NCBI RefSeq assembly: GCF_026343125.1
Contig: NZ_JAPEMB010000001.1
Coordinates: 5,523,501 to 5,587,500 of the forward strand
Length of the DNA: 64,000 nt
DNA from: Streptomyces sp. NBC_00094
GTDB lineage: Bacteria; Actinomycetota; Actinomycetes; Streptomycetales; Streptomycetaceae
Reading direction: 5' to 3'
Numbering within the stretch: position 1 is the first letter of the stretch; each line of letters starts with the position of its first letter. Below are positions 32,777 through 37,958 of the stretch, piece after piece. The position numbers and the translations under genes were made by a program. Below the pieces are notes generated by a model. That model made no database searches, was not told where the DNA came from, and worked only from the letters and a program-made list of their open reading frames with translations.

Positions 32777-33445
32777 GTGATCGTCGCGCTGATCGTGATC
32801 TGCGAGGTCGGCTTCTGGGTCCTGCTGGCCGCCGGCCTCGCCACCCGCTATCTCCTGAAGATGCCCCGGGCGGGCATGGCGCTGCTGCTGTGCGAGCCGC
32901 TCCTGGAGGTCCTGCTCCTGGTCGTCACCGCGATCGACCTCAAGAACGGGGCCGAACCGAGCTGGCGGCACGGTCTCGCCGCCGTGTACATCGGCTACAC
33001 CGTCGGCCACGGCCACCGCACCGTGAAATGGCTCGACGGCCACGCCGCCCACCGCCTCGGCGGTGGCCCGCCGCCGCGGAAGCCGCCGCAGTACGGCATG
33101 GCGCGCGCCCGGCACGAGGGCCGGGTCTGGCTCGGCTCGGTGGTCGCCGCGTCCGTCGCCTCCGTCCTGCTGCTCCTGGCGATCGGGTACGTCGGCGGCG
33201 ACGGGAACACCGAGTCGCTGCGGAGCTGGATCTTCTTCGCCTGGCGGGCGGCGGGCATCCACGGCCTGATCGCGCTCACGTACGCGATCTGGCCGAAGAA
33301 GGCCCCGCAAGCCGATTCAGCGGTCGCCGCCCGGGACCCACAGCACGTCCCCGACCTCCTTGTTCGCGGTCCGCGCAAGGATGCTGCATCCCCCGGGGGA
33401 CAACCCCCGGACCCCCGGCAAGGGCATGCCCGGCGTCCGGTCTAG
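32777..33445 (+). CDS. Conserved membrane protein with a replaced C-terminus
   Basis: A 222-residue protein with four predicted helices (about 2-22, 33-53, 120-142, 155-175) and the conserved motif AVYIGYTVGHGHRTVKWLDGH. Function unknown. After about residue 180 (YAIWPKKAPQADS) the reading frame crosses the antisense of a decayed adenosyltransferase 3' end (33317-33382) and then C/G palindromes, giving a Pro/Arg-rich tail that is probably not ancestral. The native end may have been lost when the relic arrived. GTG 32777 follows AAAGGGGAACC. Confidence 0.7.
   Translation: MIVALIVICEVGFWVLLAAGLATRYLLKMPRAGMALLLCEPLLEVLLLVVTAIDLKNGAEPSWRHGLAAVYIGYTVGHGHRTVKWLDGHAAHRLGGGPPPRKPPQYGMARARHEGRVWLGSVVAASVASVLLLLAIGYVGGDGNTESLRSWIFFAWRAAGIHGLIALTYAIWPKKAPQADSAVAARDPQHVPDLLVRGPRKDAASPGGQPPDPRQGHARRPV
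33317..33382 (-). pseudogene. Relic of the 3' end of a cobalamin adenosyltransferase gene
   Basis: Minus-strand translation gives ILARTANKEVGDVLWVPGG-DR-stop, matching the end of the intact gene next door (ILARVANKEVGDVLWVPGG-ER-stop) in all but two residues. At base level the two 66-bp segments differ at about a quarter of positions, mainly synonymous. So this piece came from a full coding sequence that diverged under selection rather than from a fresh local duplication. Homology stops abruptly at about 33383. Confidence 0.8.
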
Positions 33446-34014
33446 CGCTCTCCGCCGGGTACCCAGAGCACGTCTCCGACCTCCTTGTTGGCCACCCTGG
33501 CCAGGATGAACAGGAGGTCGGAGAGCCGGTTGAGGTACGTGGCGGTCAGGGCGTTCATCGACTCGCCGTGCACCTCGAGGGCCGCCCACGTGGAGCGCTC
33601 CGCCCGCCGGACCACCGTGCACGCCTGGTGCAGCAGCGCCGCACCGGGCGTGCCGCCCGGCAGGATGAAGGAGCGCAGCTTCTCCAGCTCCTCAAGGAAG
33701 CGGTCGCAGTCGGCCTCCAGCTTGTCGACGTACGACTGCTCGACACGCAGCGGCGGGTACTTCGGGTCCTCCACGACCGGCGTGCACAGGTCCGCGCCCA
33801 CATCGAACAGGTCGTTCTGGACGCGGACGAGGACCTTCACGACCTCCTCGTCCAGCTGCCCGAGGGCGACGGCCGTGCCGATGACGGCGTTGGCCTCGTT
33901 GGCGTCGGCGTAGGCCGAGATCCGCAGATCCGTCTTGGCGGTCCGGCTCATGTCACCGAGGGCGGTGGTGCCCTGGTCGCCGGTACGGGTGTAGATGCGC
34001 GTCAGATTGACCAT
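33442..34014 (-). CDS. Cob(I)yrinic acid a,c-diamide adenosyltransferase (PduO type)
   Basis: Transfers adenosyl from ATP to Co(I) corrinoid to form coenzyme B12, needed by methylmalonyl-CoA mutase. The 190-residue protein has the ATP loop TRTGDQGTTALGD near the N-terminus, the motif AYADANEANAVIGTA and RRAERSTWAAL and the end LLFILARVANKEVGDVLWVPGG. A TAGGCT box (minus strand 34027-34022) ends seven bases before ATG 34014 with no ribosome site, which suggests a leaderless transcript starting inside the gap after the cysteine desulfurase gene. It fits metabolically with mce and meaB downstream in the window. Confidence 0.93.
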   Translation of the reverse strand: MVNLTRIYTRTGDQGTTALGDMSRTAKTDLRISAYADANEANAVIGTAVALGQLDEEVVKVLVRVQNDLFDVGADLCTPVVEDPKYPPLRVEQSYVDKLEADCDRFLEELEKLRSFILPGGTPGAALLHQACTVVRRAERSTWAALEVHGESMNALTATYLNRLSDLLFILARVANKEVGDVLWVPGGER

Positions 34015-34021
34015 GGGGGCC

Positions 34022-34027
34022 AGCCTA
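34022..34027 (-). promoter_or_regulatory. Putative leaderless -10 for the adenosyltransferase gene
   Basis: TAGGCT on the minus strand followed by seven bases and ATG. Same sequence and nearly the same spacing as at 3427-3432. Confidence 0.45.
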
Positions 34028-34038
34028 TGCCTTGGCGA

Positions 34039-35187
34039 TCAGGCCGCCCCGACCGCCGGGCGCGAGACCCCGGCCGCCAGTGCGCGGGCAGCGTGGACGA
34101 CGTCCTCCTCGGTGGTGAAGCGGCCGAAGCCCACCCGGATGCTGCCCCGGATCCGCTCCGGCGTGAGACCGGTCGCCGTGAGGACGTGCGAGGGCTCCTG
34201 CGCCGCACTGTTGCAGGCCGAACCCGTCGACACCGCGATGTCCGTGACCTCCAGGAGCAGCTGCTGGGCATCGGTGCCCTCGAAGGACAGGTTCACCGCG
34301 TGCGGCAGGAACCCCGGTCCCGTGCCGCTGTTCAGCGCGTACGGGACCAGCTCGGCGAGCGTGGACAGGAACCGCTCCCGCAGTCCGGCCAGCCGGACCG
34401 CCTCCTCCTCCCGGCCCGTCGTGAGCACGCCGACGGCCGCGCCCAGACCGATGACGGCGGCGGTGTTGACCGTGCCCGCGCGCAGTCCGCGCTCCTGGCC
34501 GCCGCCGTGCAGCAGGGGTGCCAGCGGGGCGCGGTCCGACAGACGGTTGGAGACGTACAGGACGCCGACGCCCTTCGGGCCGTAGATCTTGTGTCCCGAG
34601 AAGGTGAGGAGGTCGACGCCGAGCGCTCGGACGTCGACCGGGAGGGAGCCCACGCCCTGCGTCGCGTCGCAGTGCAGCGGCACGCCGACGGCCCGCGTGA
34701 CCGCGCCGATCTCCGCCACCGGCTGGATCGTGGAGGTCTCGTTGTTCGCCAGCATCACCGAGACCAGCGCGGTGTCCGGCCGGAGCGCCGTCGCCACCTG
34801 GCGCGGGGAGACCCTGCCCTCGGTGTCGACGGGCAGCACGGTCACGTCGTGCCCGGCGGCCCGCAGGGCACGGCAGCTGTCGAGGACGGACTTGTGTTCC
34901 ACGGCCGTGGTCACCACGTGGCGCCGTTCGCCGGGTGTGACGACCCCCTTGATCGCGAGGTTGTTGCCCTCCGTCGCGCCCGAGGTGAAGTAGATCTCGC
35001 TGCGCGCCGCCCCGATCAGCCGGGCGACGGCTCCGCGCGCCCGCTCGACCTCGCGGAAGGCGCGGATGCCGGCCGCGTGCGGGCTGGACGGGTTGGCGTA
35101 GCAGTGGGTGGCGGCGAAGGTCATCGCCTCGACGACCGCCGGGTCGGTCGGTGTGGTCGCCTGGTGGTCGAGATAGATCGTGGCCAT
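34039..35187 (-). CDS. Cysteine desulfurase (IscS/NifS family)
   Basis: PLP enzyme that takes sulfur from cysteine as an enzyme persulfide, leaving alanine. The 382-residue protein begins MATIYLDHQATTPTDP and has the PLP lysine in TFSGHKIYGPKGVG, the substrate motif ANNETSTIQP and the catalytic Cys loop VSTGSACNSAAQEPSHVL of group I enzymes. ATG 35187 follows AGGGAG. It lies 14 bases behind an unknown gene and forms an operon with it and an RhtA-like exporter. No iscU, tusA or mnmA gene is adjacent, so its sulfur acceptor is unclear; a dedicated role in this operon is possible. Confidence 0.9.
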   Translation of the reverse strand: MATIYLDHQATTPTDPAVVEAMTFAATHCYANPSSPHAAGIRAFREVERARGAVARLIGAARSEIYFTSGATEGNNLAIKGVVTPGERRHVVTTAVEHKSVLDSCRALRAAGHDVTVLPVDTEGRVSPRQVATALRPDTALVSVMLANNETSTIQPVAEIGAVTRAVGVPLHCDATQGVGSLPVDVRALGVDLLTFSGHKIYGPKGVGVLYVSNRLSDRAPLAPLLHGGGQERGLRAGTVNTAAVIGLGAAVGVLTTGREEEAVRLAGLRERFLSTLAELVPYALNSGTGPGFLPHAVNLSFEGTDAQQLLLEVTDIAVSTGSACNSAAQEPSHVLTATGLTPERIRGSIRVGFGRFTTEEDVVHAARALAAGVSRPAVGAA

Positions 35188-35201
35188 GCCTGTACTCCCT
35201 G

Positions 35202-35966
35202 TCAGAAGTCGTCGGCGGTGTAGGGCAGGGCGATCGGATCGGCGCAGGCCGCGTCGGCGAAGACCAGCACGATCTCCTCGGCGGGGTCCGCCTGGGTGCG
35301 GAGGTAGATCTCGGCGCCCTTGGTGACCTTGTCCCGGTCGGCGAGGGAGCTGACGTCGACGACATGGCGGCGGGCGCAGTCGGGGAAGGCGGCCCGCAGC
35401 CGGGCGAAGTAGCGCGCGAAGTACTCGGCGACGAGGAGCGGGCAGCGCGGTACGACGTGGTCGTCCCTGACGACCCCGGCGAGCACCTTCTCGTACTGAC
35501 GGGAGCGGAAGACGATCTCGTCCCCGTCCAGGGAGAACAGCGGGTGCTCGGCCGGGTCGCGCAGCCGCCGCTTCATGGCGCGCGCGGCGCGATTGCGCAG
35601 CGTGCGTTCGCGCGTGACGGTGAAGGAGGTCCCGGCTTCGGCGGCCGCGGCGGTGAGCGGGGTGAGGTCGGTCTCCGCGGGGCCGGCGGCCGGCAGCGTA
35701 CACACGTCGTCGGAACAGGACATCCCGAGGTCGTTGACGATGACGTCGTACACCACCTTGTTGCCCCGGTGGAGGCGGCGGGCGGCGGCGCCGGTCTCCT
35801 GGGCCAGGGCGAAGGAGCTCAGCGAGAACTCCCCGATGCCGGCGGTCGCCTCGAAGTAGCCGCCCGCGACGAGGACCGCCGAGCGGACGGCGGGGTCGAC
35901 GGTCTCCAGGAGGGGCGCGACCCTCGGCGGGAGGGTGTGGGTCCGGGGGGTGGTCAGGGTGTTCAC
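35202..35966 (-). CDS. Unknown protein between exporter and cysteine desulfurase
   Basis: A 254-residue soluble protein I do not recognise. No membrane segment or signal. Notable features: GGYFEATAGIGEFSLSSFAL, then VIVNDLGMSCSDDVCTLP with two close cysteines (CSDDVC), a third and fourth Cys later (VVPRCPLLV, FPDCARRH) and a negatively charged end (FADAACADPIALPYTADDF). GTG 35966 overlaps the exporter stop by 4 bases and GGAG lies eight bases upstream. Position next to a desulfurase makes the CSDDVC pair a candidate sulfur-carrying or metal-binding site, but this is inference only. Confidence 0.75.
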   Translation of the reverse strand: MNTLTTPRTHTLPPRVAPLLETVDPAVRSAVLVAGGYFEATAGIGEFSLSSFALAQETGAAARRLHRGNKVVYDVIVNDLGMSCSDDVCTLPAAGPAETDLTPLTAAAAEAGTSFTVTRERTLRNRAARAMKRRLRDPAEHPLFSLDGDEIVFRSRQYEKVLAGVVRDDHVVPRCPLLVAEYFARYFARLRAAFPDCARRHVVDVSSLADRDKVTKGAEIYLRTQADPAEEIVLVFADAACADPIALPYTADDF

Positions 35967-36874
35967 GTGTGCACTCCGTTCTTCCGGGAAGGGGATCGAT
36001 CGGATGGTGCGGGGGGCTCGTCGGGTGCCGTCGGCCGGCGGGCGGTGCCGACGGCCGCGGTCACCACGCAGAGCACGGCGGCCCATTGGGCGGGTGAGAG
36101 CCGTTCGCCGAGGAGGGCCAGGCCCACCAGGGCCGCGATGACCGGCTCCACCGTGGACAGCACGGCGAAGACCCGGGGCGGCAGCCGGCGCAGCGCGGCG
36201 AACTCCAGCGAGAAGGGGACGACGGTCGTCAGGACCGCCACCGCCAGTGCGGCCCCGAGTACCCCGGGTTCGAGCAGGACCCCGGGGGAGGGCAGGCCGA
36301 GGGCGGGAGCGGTGGGCAGCGCGAGGACGGCGGCCACGGTCAGGCCGAGCGCCAGGCCGGAGCCGCCGGGGACCGCGCGGCCCACCCGGGCGCCGAGGAG
36401 GATGTAGCCGGTCAGCGCCGCGCCGGTGAGCAGGCTCGCGGCGAGGCCGACCGGATCGTCCATGCCCCGCGTACCGCCGAGCACGAGCAGGCCGACGGCC
36501 GCGACCGCCACCCAGAGCCGGTCGAGCGCGCGCCGCGAGGTGACCGCCGCGAGCAGGAGCGGTCCGCTGAACTCCAGCGTCACGACGACGCCGAGGGGCA
36601 GCCGGGAGGTCGCTTCGTAGAAGGCGAACTGCATGACGGCGAAGACGGCCCCGTAGGGGAGCAGCAGTCGCCAGTGGACGCGAAGGAGCCGTGGCGCTGG
36701 CCGGGACAGGAGGCAGAGCAGGGCGGCGGCGATGAGGAGGCGCAGCAGGGTCGCGCCGGTCGGGCCGGTCTCCTCGAAGAGCCGCTTCGCGAAGGCGGAG
36801 CCGAACTGCAGGCTGACCATGCCGGTCAGGAGCAGCAGGGGCGCGGGGGCGGCTCCCAGGGCGTACGGACGCAT
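35963..36874 (-). CDS. RhtA-like EamA/DMT-family exporter
   Basis: A 303-residue protein with ten predicted helices and two EamA repeats. It follows the E. coli RhtA (threonine/homoserine exporter) pattern closely: SLQFGSAFAKRLF, ATLLRLLIAA, PLGVVVTLEFSGPLLLA, VPFSLEFAALRRLPPRVF and STVEPVIAALVGL. The substrate is therefore probably a small amino acid, perhaps cysteine or a derivative given the downstream desulfurase. ATG 36874 follows GAGAGGAGG. It opens a three-gene operon controlled by the palindrome at 36939-36955. Confidence 0.85.
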   Translation of the reverse strand: MRPYALGAAPAPLLLLTGMVSLQFGSAFAKRLFEETGPTGATLLRLLIAAALLCLLSRPAPRLLRVHWRLLLPYGAVFAVMQFAFYEATSRLPLGVVVTLEFSGPLLLAAVTSRRALDRLWVAVAAVGLLVLGGTRGMDDPVGLAASLLTGAALTGYILLGARVGRAVPGGSGLALGLTVAAVLALPTAPALGLPSPGVLLEPGVLGAALAVAVLTTVVPFSLEFAALRRLPPRVFAVLSTVEPVIAALVGLALLGERLSPAQWAAVLCVVTAAVGTARRPTAPDEPPAPSDRSPSRKNGVHT

Positions 36875-36938
36875 GACGGCACCTCCTCTCCGGGTCTCGG
36901 CTCGGTGCCTCGATCGGCGGGCGAATGCCGGAGACTCT

Positions 36939-36955
36939 ATACCCCCTAGGGGTAT
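36939..36955 (-). promoter_or_regulatory. CsoR/CstR-like operator over the promoter of the exporter operon
   Basis: ATACCCCCTAGGGGTAT has perfect 7-bp arms (ATACCCC/GGGGTAT) around CTA. On the minus strand it runs into TATAGAGT, a likely -10 about 55-65 bases before the exporter ATG. ATACCCC...GGGGTAT palindromes are the type bound by CsoR (copper) and CstR (persulfide) repressors. No csoR-family gene lies in the window, so the regulator would act in trans. Confidence 0.65.
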
Positions 36956-37109: not shown

Positions 37110-37958
37110 GTGGCCAGGAAGCTCGCCGTCATCGGGGCCGGACTCATGGGGTCCGGCATCGCGCAGGTCTCGGCACAGGCAGGCTGGGACGTCGTCCTGC
37201 GTGACGTCACCGACGCCGCCCTGACCCGCGGCACCGACGGAATCAAGGCGTCGTACGACCGGTTCGTCGCCAAGGGCAAGCTGAGCGCCGCCGACGCCGA
37301 GGCCGCACTCGGCCGGATCACCGCCACGACCGAGCTCGAGGCCGTCGCCGACGCCGACATCATCGTCGAGGCCGTCTTCGAGAACCTCGACGTCAAGCAC
37401 GAGATCTTCCGCTCGCTCGACAAGGTCGCCAAGGACGGCGCCGTCCTCGCCTCCAACACCTCCGCGATCCCGATCACCAAGATCGCCGCGGTGACCGAGC
37501 GCCCCGAGGCCGTCGTCGGCACCCACTTCTTCTCGCCGGTCCCGATGATGCAGCTCTGCGAGCTCGTCCGCGGCTACAAGACGAGCGACGCCACCCTCGC
37601 CACCGCCCGGGAGTTCGCCGAGTCGGTCGGCAAGACCTGCATCGTCGTCAACCGTGACGTGGCCGGCTTCGTCACCACCCGGCTCATCGCCGCCCTCGTC
37701 GTCGAGGCCGCCAAGCTCCACGAGTCGGGCGTCGCCACCGCCGAGGACATCGACATCGCCTGCAAGCTCGGCTTCGGCCACGCCATGGGCCCGCTCGCCA
37801 CCGCCGACCTCACCGGCATCGACATCCTGGTGAACGCGGCCAACAACATCTACACCGAGTCCCAGGACGAGAAGTTCGCGCCCCCGGAGCTGATGCGCCG
37901 GATGGTGGACGCGGGTGACATCGGGCGCAAGAGCGGGCAGGGCTTCTACAAGCACTGA
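37110..37958 (+). CDS. 3-hydroxybutyryl-CoA dehydrogenase
   Basis: NAD(P)-dependent enzyme of short-chain acyl-CoA metabolism (acetoacetyl-CoA to 3-hydroxybutyryl-CoA). The 282-residue protein has the Rossmann motif IGAGLMGSGIAQVSA, the catalytic His in TPEAVVGTHFFSPVPMM-like VGTHFFSPVP, and the C-terminal domain motif GFVTTRLIAAL. GTG 37110 is used. It stands alone with a 9-bp inverted repeat upstream; it probably serves the ethylmalonyl-CoA or butyryl pathway along with the thiolase and meaB of this window. The symbol hbdA is often used but paralogues exist. Confidence 0.9.
   Translation: MARKLAVIGAGLMGSGIAQVSAQAGWDVVLRDVTDAALTRGTDGIKASYDRFVAKGKLSAADAEAALGRITATTELEAVADADIIVEAVFENLDVKHEIFRSLDKVAKDGAVLASNTSAIPITKIAAVTERPEAVVGTHFFSPVPMMQLCELVRGYKTSDATLATAREFAESVGKTCIVVNRDVAGFVTTRLIAALVVEAAKLHESGVATAEDIDIACKLGFGHAMGPLATADLTGIDILVNAANNIYTESQDEKFAPPELMRRMVDAGDIGRKSGQGFYKH

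What the first reader, a model, noticed from the sequence alone, without database searches (positions are those of the whole stretch)
34039..36955. RhtA-like exporter / unknown protein / cysteine desulfurase operon under a CsoR/CstR-like operator
Three overlapping or closely spaced genes encode an amino acid exporter, a 254-residue protein of no known family with a CSDDVC pair, and a group I cysteine desulfurase without its usual partners. ATACCCCCTAGGGGTAT covers the probable -10. CstR-type repressors sense persulfides and CsoR senses copper. A coherent idea is a sulfur or cysteine stress module: the desulfurase makes persulfide, the unknown protein carries or uses it, and the exporter removes a cysteine-like product. 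This is the best candidate for an undescribed system in the window.
Basis: inference. Interest (0 to 1): 0.75.

Follow-up and report, generated by a model that had tools for sequence, protein, structure and literature searches.

The report
Copper-controlled sulfur operon, unknown protein family
A small Streptomyces operon carries a proven type of copper-sensor switch and pairs a cysteine-splitting enzyme with a protein of no described family; a distant relative of that pair in a marine bacterium also sits behind a copper-type switch, of a different kind, so the pair probably does an unknown copper-related sulfur job.

Summary
Three minus-strand genes (36874-34039) form a tight operon: an EamA-type exporter, a 254-residue orphan (P0001) and a group I cysteine desulfurase. 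The operator is of the copper (CsoR) type, not the persulfide (CstR) type: its 15-base core equals both S. lividans copZA operators bound by CsoR in vitro, the exact 17-mer occurs only here and before copZ-copA in this genome, and its TAC-N9-GTA spacing differs from the N8 sites beside two CstR-like genes. Gene order and an N9 site are kept in 11 of 11 Streptomyces genomes found with P0001.

P0001 has no credible match in the five libraries searched. A distant homolog in Pseudoalteromonas sp. NC201 is again followed by a cysteine desulfurase, from a different branch, behind a CueR-type promoter box like those of copA and a copZ-like gene nearby. Copper-type control of the orphan-desulfurase pair thus appears twice, through two regulator families. 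Three cysteines (DxGxxCx4C, CPL) are kept in 13 of 13 homologs checked, one of which has no desulfurase neighbour.

Best reading: under copper stress the desulfurase hands sulfur to P0001, which modifies a small molecule or target; the exporter is a lineage-specific addition. Copper control is well supported; the chemistry is inferred; no usable structure was obtained.

The parts
36939..36955 (.). CsoR-type (type 2, TAC-N9-GTA) operator ATACCCCCTAGGGGTAT
   Evidence: core identical to copZA1 and copZA2 operators bound by S. lividans CsoR (PMC3902906, passages); an N9 site lies upstream in 11 of 11 Streptomyces genomes found with P0001
36934..36939 (-). candidate -10 hexamer (TAGAGT), read by eye; unproven
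   Evidence: sequence printed; no sigma-70 consensus hit
35963..36874 (-). EamA/DMT-family exporter (P0003, 303 aa), distantly RhtA-like
   Evidence: Pfam EamA 65.1 bits, cut-off 28.2; NCBIfam RhtA 168.2 bits, below its cut-off 354
35202..35966 (-). P0001, 254-aa orphan protein: GGYF, DLGMSC-x4-C, ERxxRNR, CPLL motifs
   Evidence: no credible family match; homologs P0006 and P0008; motifs in 13 of 13 homologs checked
34039..35187 (-). group I (IscS/NifS-type) cysteine desulfurase (P0002, 382 aa)
   Evidence: Pfam Aminotran_5; TIGR03402 391.6 bits, below equivalog cut-off; PDB IscS/NFS1 matches; STGSACNSAAQEPSH, SGHK and EHK motifs
33442..34014 (-). cob(I)alamin adenosyltransferase (PduO-type name recalled), 24 bases downstream; flank of the insertion site, perhaps read through
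   Evidence: Pfam Cob_adeno_trans; near the dehydrogenase gene in genomes without the operon
37110..37958 (+). 3-hydroxyacyl-CoA dehydrogenase-family gene, divergent flank
   Evidence: Pfam 3HCDH_N and 3HCDH; landmark

Best explanation
It is a copper-responsive sulfur-mobilisation operon. Cu-free CsoR sits on the operator and shuts the promoter; Cu(I) removes it, so the three genes come on together with copZ-copA. The dedicated group I cysteine desulfurase takes sulfur from cysteine as an enzyme-bound persulfide and passes it to P0001, whose invariant C84-x4-C89 pair and C175 act as acceptor or catalytic residues. P0001 then places the sulfur on a small molecule, most simply an amino-acid-like copper ligand that the EamA permease exports, or on a protein target. 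Basis: gene layout, operator sequence and conservation are shown; repression and copper induction are inferred from operator identity; desulfurase-to-P0001 transfer is inferred from repeated pairing under copper-type control; the sulfur-bearing exported ligand is a hypothesis (about 0.3 on its own).
For: Operator core identical to the two copZA operators bound by S. lividans CsoR, and the exact 17-mer shared in this genome only with copZ-copA. N9 operator and three-gene order kept in 11 of 11 Streptomyces genomes found with P0001. Two CsoR-family genes with the copper-type Cys-His-Cys pattern (pattern recalled). Second case: Pseudoalteromonas NC201 has a P0001 homolog (tblastn 6e-11; 27% identity) followed by a cysteine desulfurase and an aminotransferase, next to cueR (TIGR02044 above cut-off) and copA. 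Its upstream region has TTGACCTTACC, and TTGACC-19 bases-TACAGT; four TTGACCTTACC places were found on the 1.24 Mb replicon: this operon, copA, a divergent copZ-like gene, and one inside a coding gene. The two desulfurases lie in different branches, so the pairing was probably made twice (one-clade p-AU 0.033). Desulfurase active-site motifs present. All three genes under constraint, dN/dS 0.13-0.44 over six comparisons. C84, C89 and C175 kept in 13 of 13 homologs checked.
Against: No expression, binding or biochemical data. A third homolog (P0008, G548) is not next to a desulfurase but between aldehyde ferredoxin oxidoreductase and MttB genes, so the family is not tied to desulfurases or copper everywhere. 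No exporter seen in the NC201 operon. The three cysteines may bind metal or be structural. The fold is unknown: AlphaFold2 gave mean pLDDT 32.8. The recruitment test is modest and P0007 is a long branch. The NC201 copper reading rests on sequence boxes in one strain; the relaxed box pattern itself is not much commoner than its reversed control (4 and 6 matches, six distinct places, against 2 and 3), two of those six places were not looked at, and the TTGACC-N19-TANNNT form also has one match inside copA. The NC201 chromosome was not searched.
Confidence: 0.5

Rival explanations
1. Iron-sulfur repair: copper breaks Fe-S clusters, and the extra desulfurase supplies sulfur for rebuilding them, with P0001 as an unusual scaffold or assembly factor. 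The exporter is incidental.
For: Group I desulfurase with active-site motifs present; copper-type operator. That copper damages Fe-S clusters is recalled knowledge; the listing shows the title and abstract start of PMC9576991 on soft metals and radical SAM enzymes.
Against: No Fe-S scaffold or carrier among the five nearest flanking ORFs scanned (adenosyltransferase, dehydrogenase, STAS, histidine kinase, one without a match); narrow spread (8 of 392 Streptomyces) for a general repair need; a dedicated exporter has no role in it.
Confidence: 0.2
2. Cysteine disposal: under copper stress the desulfurase and exporter lower free cysteine, or expel cysteine or alanine, to stop copper-thiol redox cycling; P0001 is the sulfur sink or helps form copper sulfide.
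For: RhtA-like amino-acid exporter resemblance together with a desulfurase; three invariant cysteines that could bind Cu(I) or sulfur.
Against: No exporter seen in the NC201 operon; a general cysteine sink does not obviously need a dedicated conserved partner protein.
Confidence: 0.12
3. Persulfide (CstR) stress module, the first reader's alternative: a CstR-type repressor controls the operon and reactive sulfur is the signal.
For: CsoR and CstR operators are of one general kind; two CstR-like genes exist in this genome, one directly beside a rhodanese gene.
Against: Sites beside both CstR-like genes have TAC-N8-GTA, while this operon has TAC-N9-GTA in 11 of 11 genomes and the copZA core; the NC201 relative has a CueR-type box.
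Confidence: 0.05

Closest known systems
CsoR regulon of Streptomyces lividans (copZA1, copZA2, csoR)
   Same: Identical 15-base operator core with copZA1 and copZA2; copper-type CsoR genes present; operator just upstream of the first gene
   Different: The three proven S. lividans targets are copper efflux and csoR itself; this operon encodes a desulfurase, an orphan protein and an amino-acid-type exporter, and was found in only 8 of 392 Streptomyces sampled
Cysteine desulfurase plus sulfur acceptor pairs (IscS-IscU, SufS-SufE/SufU, IscS-FdhD; partners recalled)
   Same: Group I desulfurase next to a small protein with conserved cysteines
   Different: P0001 matches no Pfam or NCBIfam family; copper-type control; exporter in the operon
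Fluopsin C (flc) cluster of Pseudomonas aeruginosa
   Same: A copper-containing antibiotic; that it is sulfur-bearing, cysteine-derived and copper-linked in control is recalled; only listing and abstract start of PMC11363339 were seen
   Different: FlcD is a haem-oxygenase-like oxidase (that abstract); the three proteins here match no such family; no flc sequence was compared
DndA/SspA desulfurases of DNA phosphorothioation
   Same: P0002 and P0007 match PADLOC DndA and SspA models
   Different: P0002 is below the NCBIfam DndA cut-off (369.5 against 480); no Dnd or Ssp partner among the five flanking ORFs scanned

Membership tests
CsoR-regulated copper operon | Type 2 operator, TAC-N9-GTA with C/G tracts, upstream of the first gene | tested here: met
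   kept in 11 of 11 genomes
CsoR-regulated copper operon | A copper-type CsoR (Cys-His-Cys, pattern recalled) encoded in the genome | tested here: met
   L015 and L016, 2 of 4 family members. Nearest NCBIfam model RicR, 136.5 and 145 bits, below its cut-off 175; the CstR-like L017 also has RicR as best model but at 43.2 bits; L018 was not scanned
CsoR-regulated copper operon | Binding of CsoR and induction by copper | not testable with these tools
   needs EMSA and expression data
CstR-regulated sulfur operon | Operator like those beside CstR-like genes of the same genome | tested here: not met
   N8 spacing at 2 of 2 CstR-like genes, N9 here
Group I cysteine desulfurase (IscS/NifS) | Class V aminotransferase with PLP lysine, histidine and active-site cysteine in the long loop (residues recalled) | tested here: met
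   by sequence only
IscS, NifS or DndA equivalog | Score above the curated equivalog cut-off | tested here: not met
   368.7/643.2, 391.6/530.75, 369.5/480 bits
RhtA threonine/homoserine exporter | Score above the curated equivalog cut-off | tested here: not met
   168.2 against 354; the EamA family itself is met
ISC/SUF/NIF iron-sulfur assembly operon | Scaffold or carrier gene (IscU, SufU, HesB) beside the desulfurase | tested here: not met
   P0001 and exporter and five flanking ORFs match no such family; the rest of the window was not scanned
CueR-regulated promoter (NC201 homolog) | cueR gene present; TTGACC -35, 19-base spacer and -10 upstream (features recalled) | tested here: met
   sequence only, and the right half of the dyad is weaker than at copA

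The most novel reading that the evidence does not exclude
P0001 defines a new family of sulfur-transfer enzymes that, with a separately recruited cysteine desulfurase and under copper control in two phyla, builds a small sulfur-bearing copper ligand from amino-acid precursors: a copper-induced pathway of a kind not described in the libraries and papers searched here.
Probability: 0.27. Interest if true: 0.85.

Novelty: new variant of a known kind. Interest (0 to 1): 0.6.

Why it matters
Bacterial copper defence is mostly told as efflux, sequestration and oxidation. A copper switch on a dedicated cysteine desulfurase and an undescribed protein, found twice behind two unrelated kinds of copper box, would add sulfur chemistry as a regulated arm of the copper response, and would give an unannotated family a testable function. 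If the product is exported it may be a new copper-binding metabolite.

Tried and rejected
AlphaFold2 on six similar rows (79-85% identical to P0001) gave mean pLDDT 32.8, so no fold search was run. P0006 and P0008 were not handed to the predictor because its stated rule does not admit their source.

A match in G568 (E 1.6e-4, 6.3e-4) was rejected: the stretch has three stop codons and lies antisense in a CopA-like ORF. Phage matches of P0001 (E 0.3 or worse, 30% of the query, terminase genes) and weak PDB, PHROG and Pfam matches were treated as chance. Viral contigs gave no relative; phages gave none for P0006; the class of G548 gave only G548 itself, 1 of 40. For the closest desulfurases of other actinobacteria four neighbourhoods were fetched; none holds a match to P0001 or P0003 at E 1e-3.

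The fourth TTGACCTTACC place of NC201 is inside a coding gene and was set aside. Two other relaxed matches there (L086, L088) were not looked at. No paper describing this operon was found: searches (open-licence library only); an earlier S. lividans CsoR paper, cited as PMC3366776, is not held. One search was a useless alignment with a 10-base reference. A first try to translate L018 used a wrong frame.
Full report
WHAT IS THERE. Three minus-strand genes overlap or nearly touch: exporter 36874-35963, P0001 35966-35202, cysteine desulfurase P0002 35187-34039. The operator ATACCCCCTAGGGGTAT is at 36939-36955, 64 bases before the exporter's ATG. A cobalamin adenosyltransferase gene (Pfam) starts 24 bases beyond the desulfurase's stop.

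THE OPERATOR IS A COPPER-TYPE CSOR SITE. PMC3902906 (passages seen) lists the three S. lividans sites bound by CsoR; copZA1 and copZA2 both contain TACCCCCTAGGGGTA, the exact core here, and the TAC/GTA dyad, nine bases apart, is needed for binding. In this genome the exact 17-mer occurs twice, here and 5' of a copZ-copA pair. The relaxed core TACCCCCNNNGGGTA has nine exact places: before copZ-copA; two between a second copZ-copA-csoR set and an unassigned divergent gene; two before an MFS gene; one each before a DUF4396 gene, a CMD-like gene and a penicillinase-repressor-type gene; and this operon (genes; copZ, copA and the DHA2 name of the MFS gene partly recalled, CMD and the MFS subfamily just below their cut-offs). 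With up to one mismatch there are 19 forward and 19 reverse matches, palindromic places counted twice, against 6 and 9 for the reversed-pattern control. The 15-mer core is seen at four places and expected about 0.014 times by composition. The genome has four CsoR-family genes. L015 and L016 show the Cys-His-Cys pattern (recalled as the copper type) and score best with the copper sensor RicR, below its cut-off; L017, which lacks the histidine, also has RicR as its best model but at 43 bits. L017 lies beside a rhodanese gene (Pfam). L018 was not translated in frame; its DNA, read by eye, also lacks the histidine, and a rhodanese-like ORF (name recalled) lies about 0.9 kb away. The sites beside L017 and L018 read TAC-N8-GTA. 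The copper reading therefore rests on identity with proven sites and on spacing, not on an experiment.

THE OPERON IS A UNIT, IN FEW SPECIES. P0001 was found in 3 of 199 genomes of the genus, 8 of 392 in a larger draw, 8 of 391 of the order (10 genera drawn, hits in one), and in 5 loci of the 84,980-species collection, where only two peptide patterns were used. In 11 of 11 the exporter, P0001 and desulfurase lie together and a TAC-N9-GTA site lies upstream; in G974 (L144) exporter and desulfurase matches come in two pieces in different frames, a frameshift or a sequencing fault. The inner bases vary between species while the TAC/GTA arms and N9 spacing stay. In 5 of 5 loci of the named collection the operon lies between the same two neighbours, adenosyltransferase and dehydrogenase. 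Of 30 dehydrogenase loci held (from 59 of 61 genomes with a match), 2 show the operon (the window's own and G004), 15 show the adenosyltransferase within the held upstream flank and no operon, and 13 show neither. dN/dS is 0.13-0.44 for the three genes over six comparisons, P0001 being the least constrained (0.29-0.44).

P0001 IS A FAMILY WITHOUT A NAME. No Pfam, NCBIfam or PADLOC match, and only PHROG and PDB matches with E 0.36 or worse; for its homologs the best is a Pfam match at E 0.012, below cut-off, and profiles of the family find nothing better than E 0.29 in the PDB. Two distant homologs were found. P0006 in Pseudoalteromonas sp. NC201: the single match among 72,556 plasmid-collection records (E 6e-11; 57 of 212 residues identical). 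P0008 in G548, a genome of the same phylum (E 4.3e-9 for one genome, 396 searched, with a profile that did not include it; 17% identity); G548 is 85% complete with 4% contamination, so the contig could be misbinned. GG[YH]F, DxGxxC-x4-C, E[RK]xx[RK]NR and CPL occur in 13 of 13 homologs checked (11 Streptomyces, P0006, P0008); these motifs were chosen after seeing the alignments. The CSDDVC pair is thus conserved as C-x4-C, and a third cysteine (C175) with it.

THE NC201 CASE. P0006 is followed by a desulfurase (P0007, 39% identical to P0002) and an aminotransferase. Convergent to them are cueR (TIGR02044, 154.4 bits, cut-off 147.4) and copA. Upstream of P0006 stands TTGACC-19 bases-TACAGT; copA has TTGACC-19 bases-TAGTGT. 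The search with TTGACCTT-N1-2-CC-N4-12-G gave 4 forward and 6 reverse matches at six distinct places, against 2 and 3 for the reversed control. Four of the six read TTGACCTTACC: before P0006, before copA, before a divergent copZ-like HMA gene, and inside a coding gene; the other two were not looked at. In the 24.6 kb locus TTGACC occurs 14 times and three have TANNNT at 19 bases: P0006, copA, and one inside the copA gene. The numbers alone are weak; the weight lies in the position at the start of this operon beside cueR and copA. The NC201 genome paper (whole text read) does not mention this operon. In a 37-row tree, with 18 other actinobacterial rows and 8 reference rows of my choosing, the two desulfurases fall in different branches: P0007 inside a branch with IscS, NifS and Dnd-linked enzymes (97/97), the P0002 group on its own long branch. 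Forcing them together costs 19.3 log-likelihood units, p-AU 0.033. This is modest evidence for separate recruitment, weakened by the long P0007 branch and because the group was tested after the tree was seen.

AGAINST A SIMPLE STORY. P0008 has no desulfurase beside it; its neighbours are an aldehyde ferredoxin oxidoreductase and an MttB-family gene. The exporter was seen only in the Streptomyces form. The fold could not be predicted.

MECHANISM. Shown: gene layout, operator, conservation, pairing. Inferred: CsoR repression and copper induction (I put this at about 0.9); sulfur handed from desulfurase to P0001 (about 0.6); an exported sulfur-bearing copper ligand (about 0.3). Fe-S repair and cysteine disposal remain possible. 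The parallel closest in logic is IscS-FdhD (recalled), where a conserved-cysteine protein takes persulfide from a desulfurase for a molybdenum enzyme; P0008 beside a tungsten/molybdenum-type oxidoreductase gene fits that loosely.

NOVELTY. The parts are of known kinds; the copper control of a dedicated desulfurase and the P0001 family are not in the libraries searched, and the paper searches brought up no description in an open-licence library. PMC6414726 (passages) names proven and predicted CsoR targets of S. coelicolor; I did not map them onto this window; the words cysteine and sulfur do not occur in that text. I rate it a new variant of a known kind with a real chance of something larger.

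Noticed in passing
window 33442-34041: The cobalamin adenosyltransferase gene begins 24 bases after the desulfurase's stop on the same strand, so it may be read through from the copper promoter; in five of five other species with held flanks 0.5-2.5 kb of other sequence lies between.
   Followed up: partly
G000:C1:4513085 and 4513121 (L022, L023): Two CsoR-type sites, 36 bases apart, precede an MFS efflux gene of DHA2 type (just below the EmrB model's cut-off): another unexplained probable copper-regulon member.
   Followed up: no
G000:C1:2127987 (L020), 1012622 (L019) and 4559733 (L024): CsoR-type sites before a DUF4396 membrane protein with a histidine-rich N-terminus, before a CMD-like protein and before a penicillinase-repressor-type gene.
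   Followed up: no
L017 1758-1771, L018 1777-1790: Two CstR-like genes with TAC-N8-GTA sites, one base shorter than the copper sites; the spacing may separate CsoR from CstR targets in Streptomyces.
   Followed up: partly
L076 5893-11285: Divergent from the NC201 operon lie a flavin amine oxidase, a thiamine-diphosphate enzyme and a berberine-bridge-like oxidase, perhaps a biosynthetic cluster linked to the copper-controlled genes.
   Followed up: no
L097 394-4623 (G548): P0008 sits between an aldehyde ferredoxin oxidoreductase and an MttB-family gene that is split into two ORFs around an unread base: a different context for the P0001 family.
   Followed up: partly
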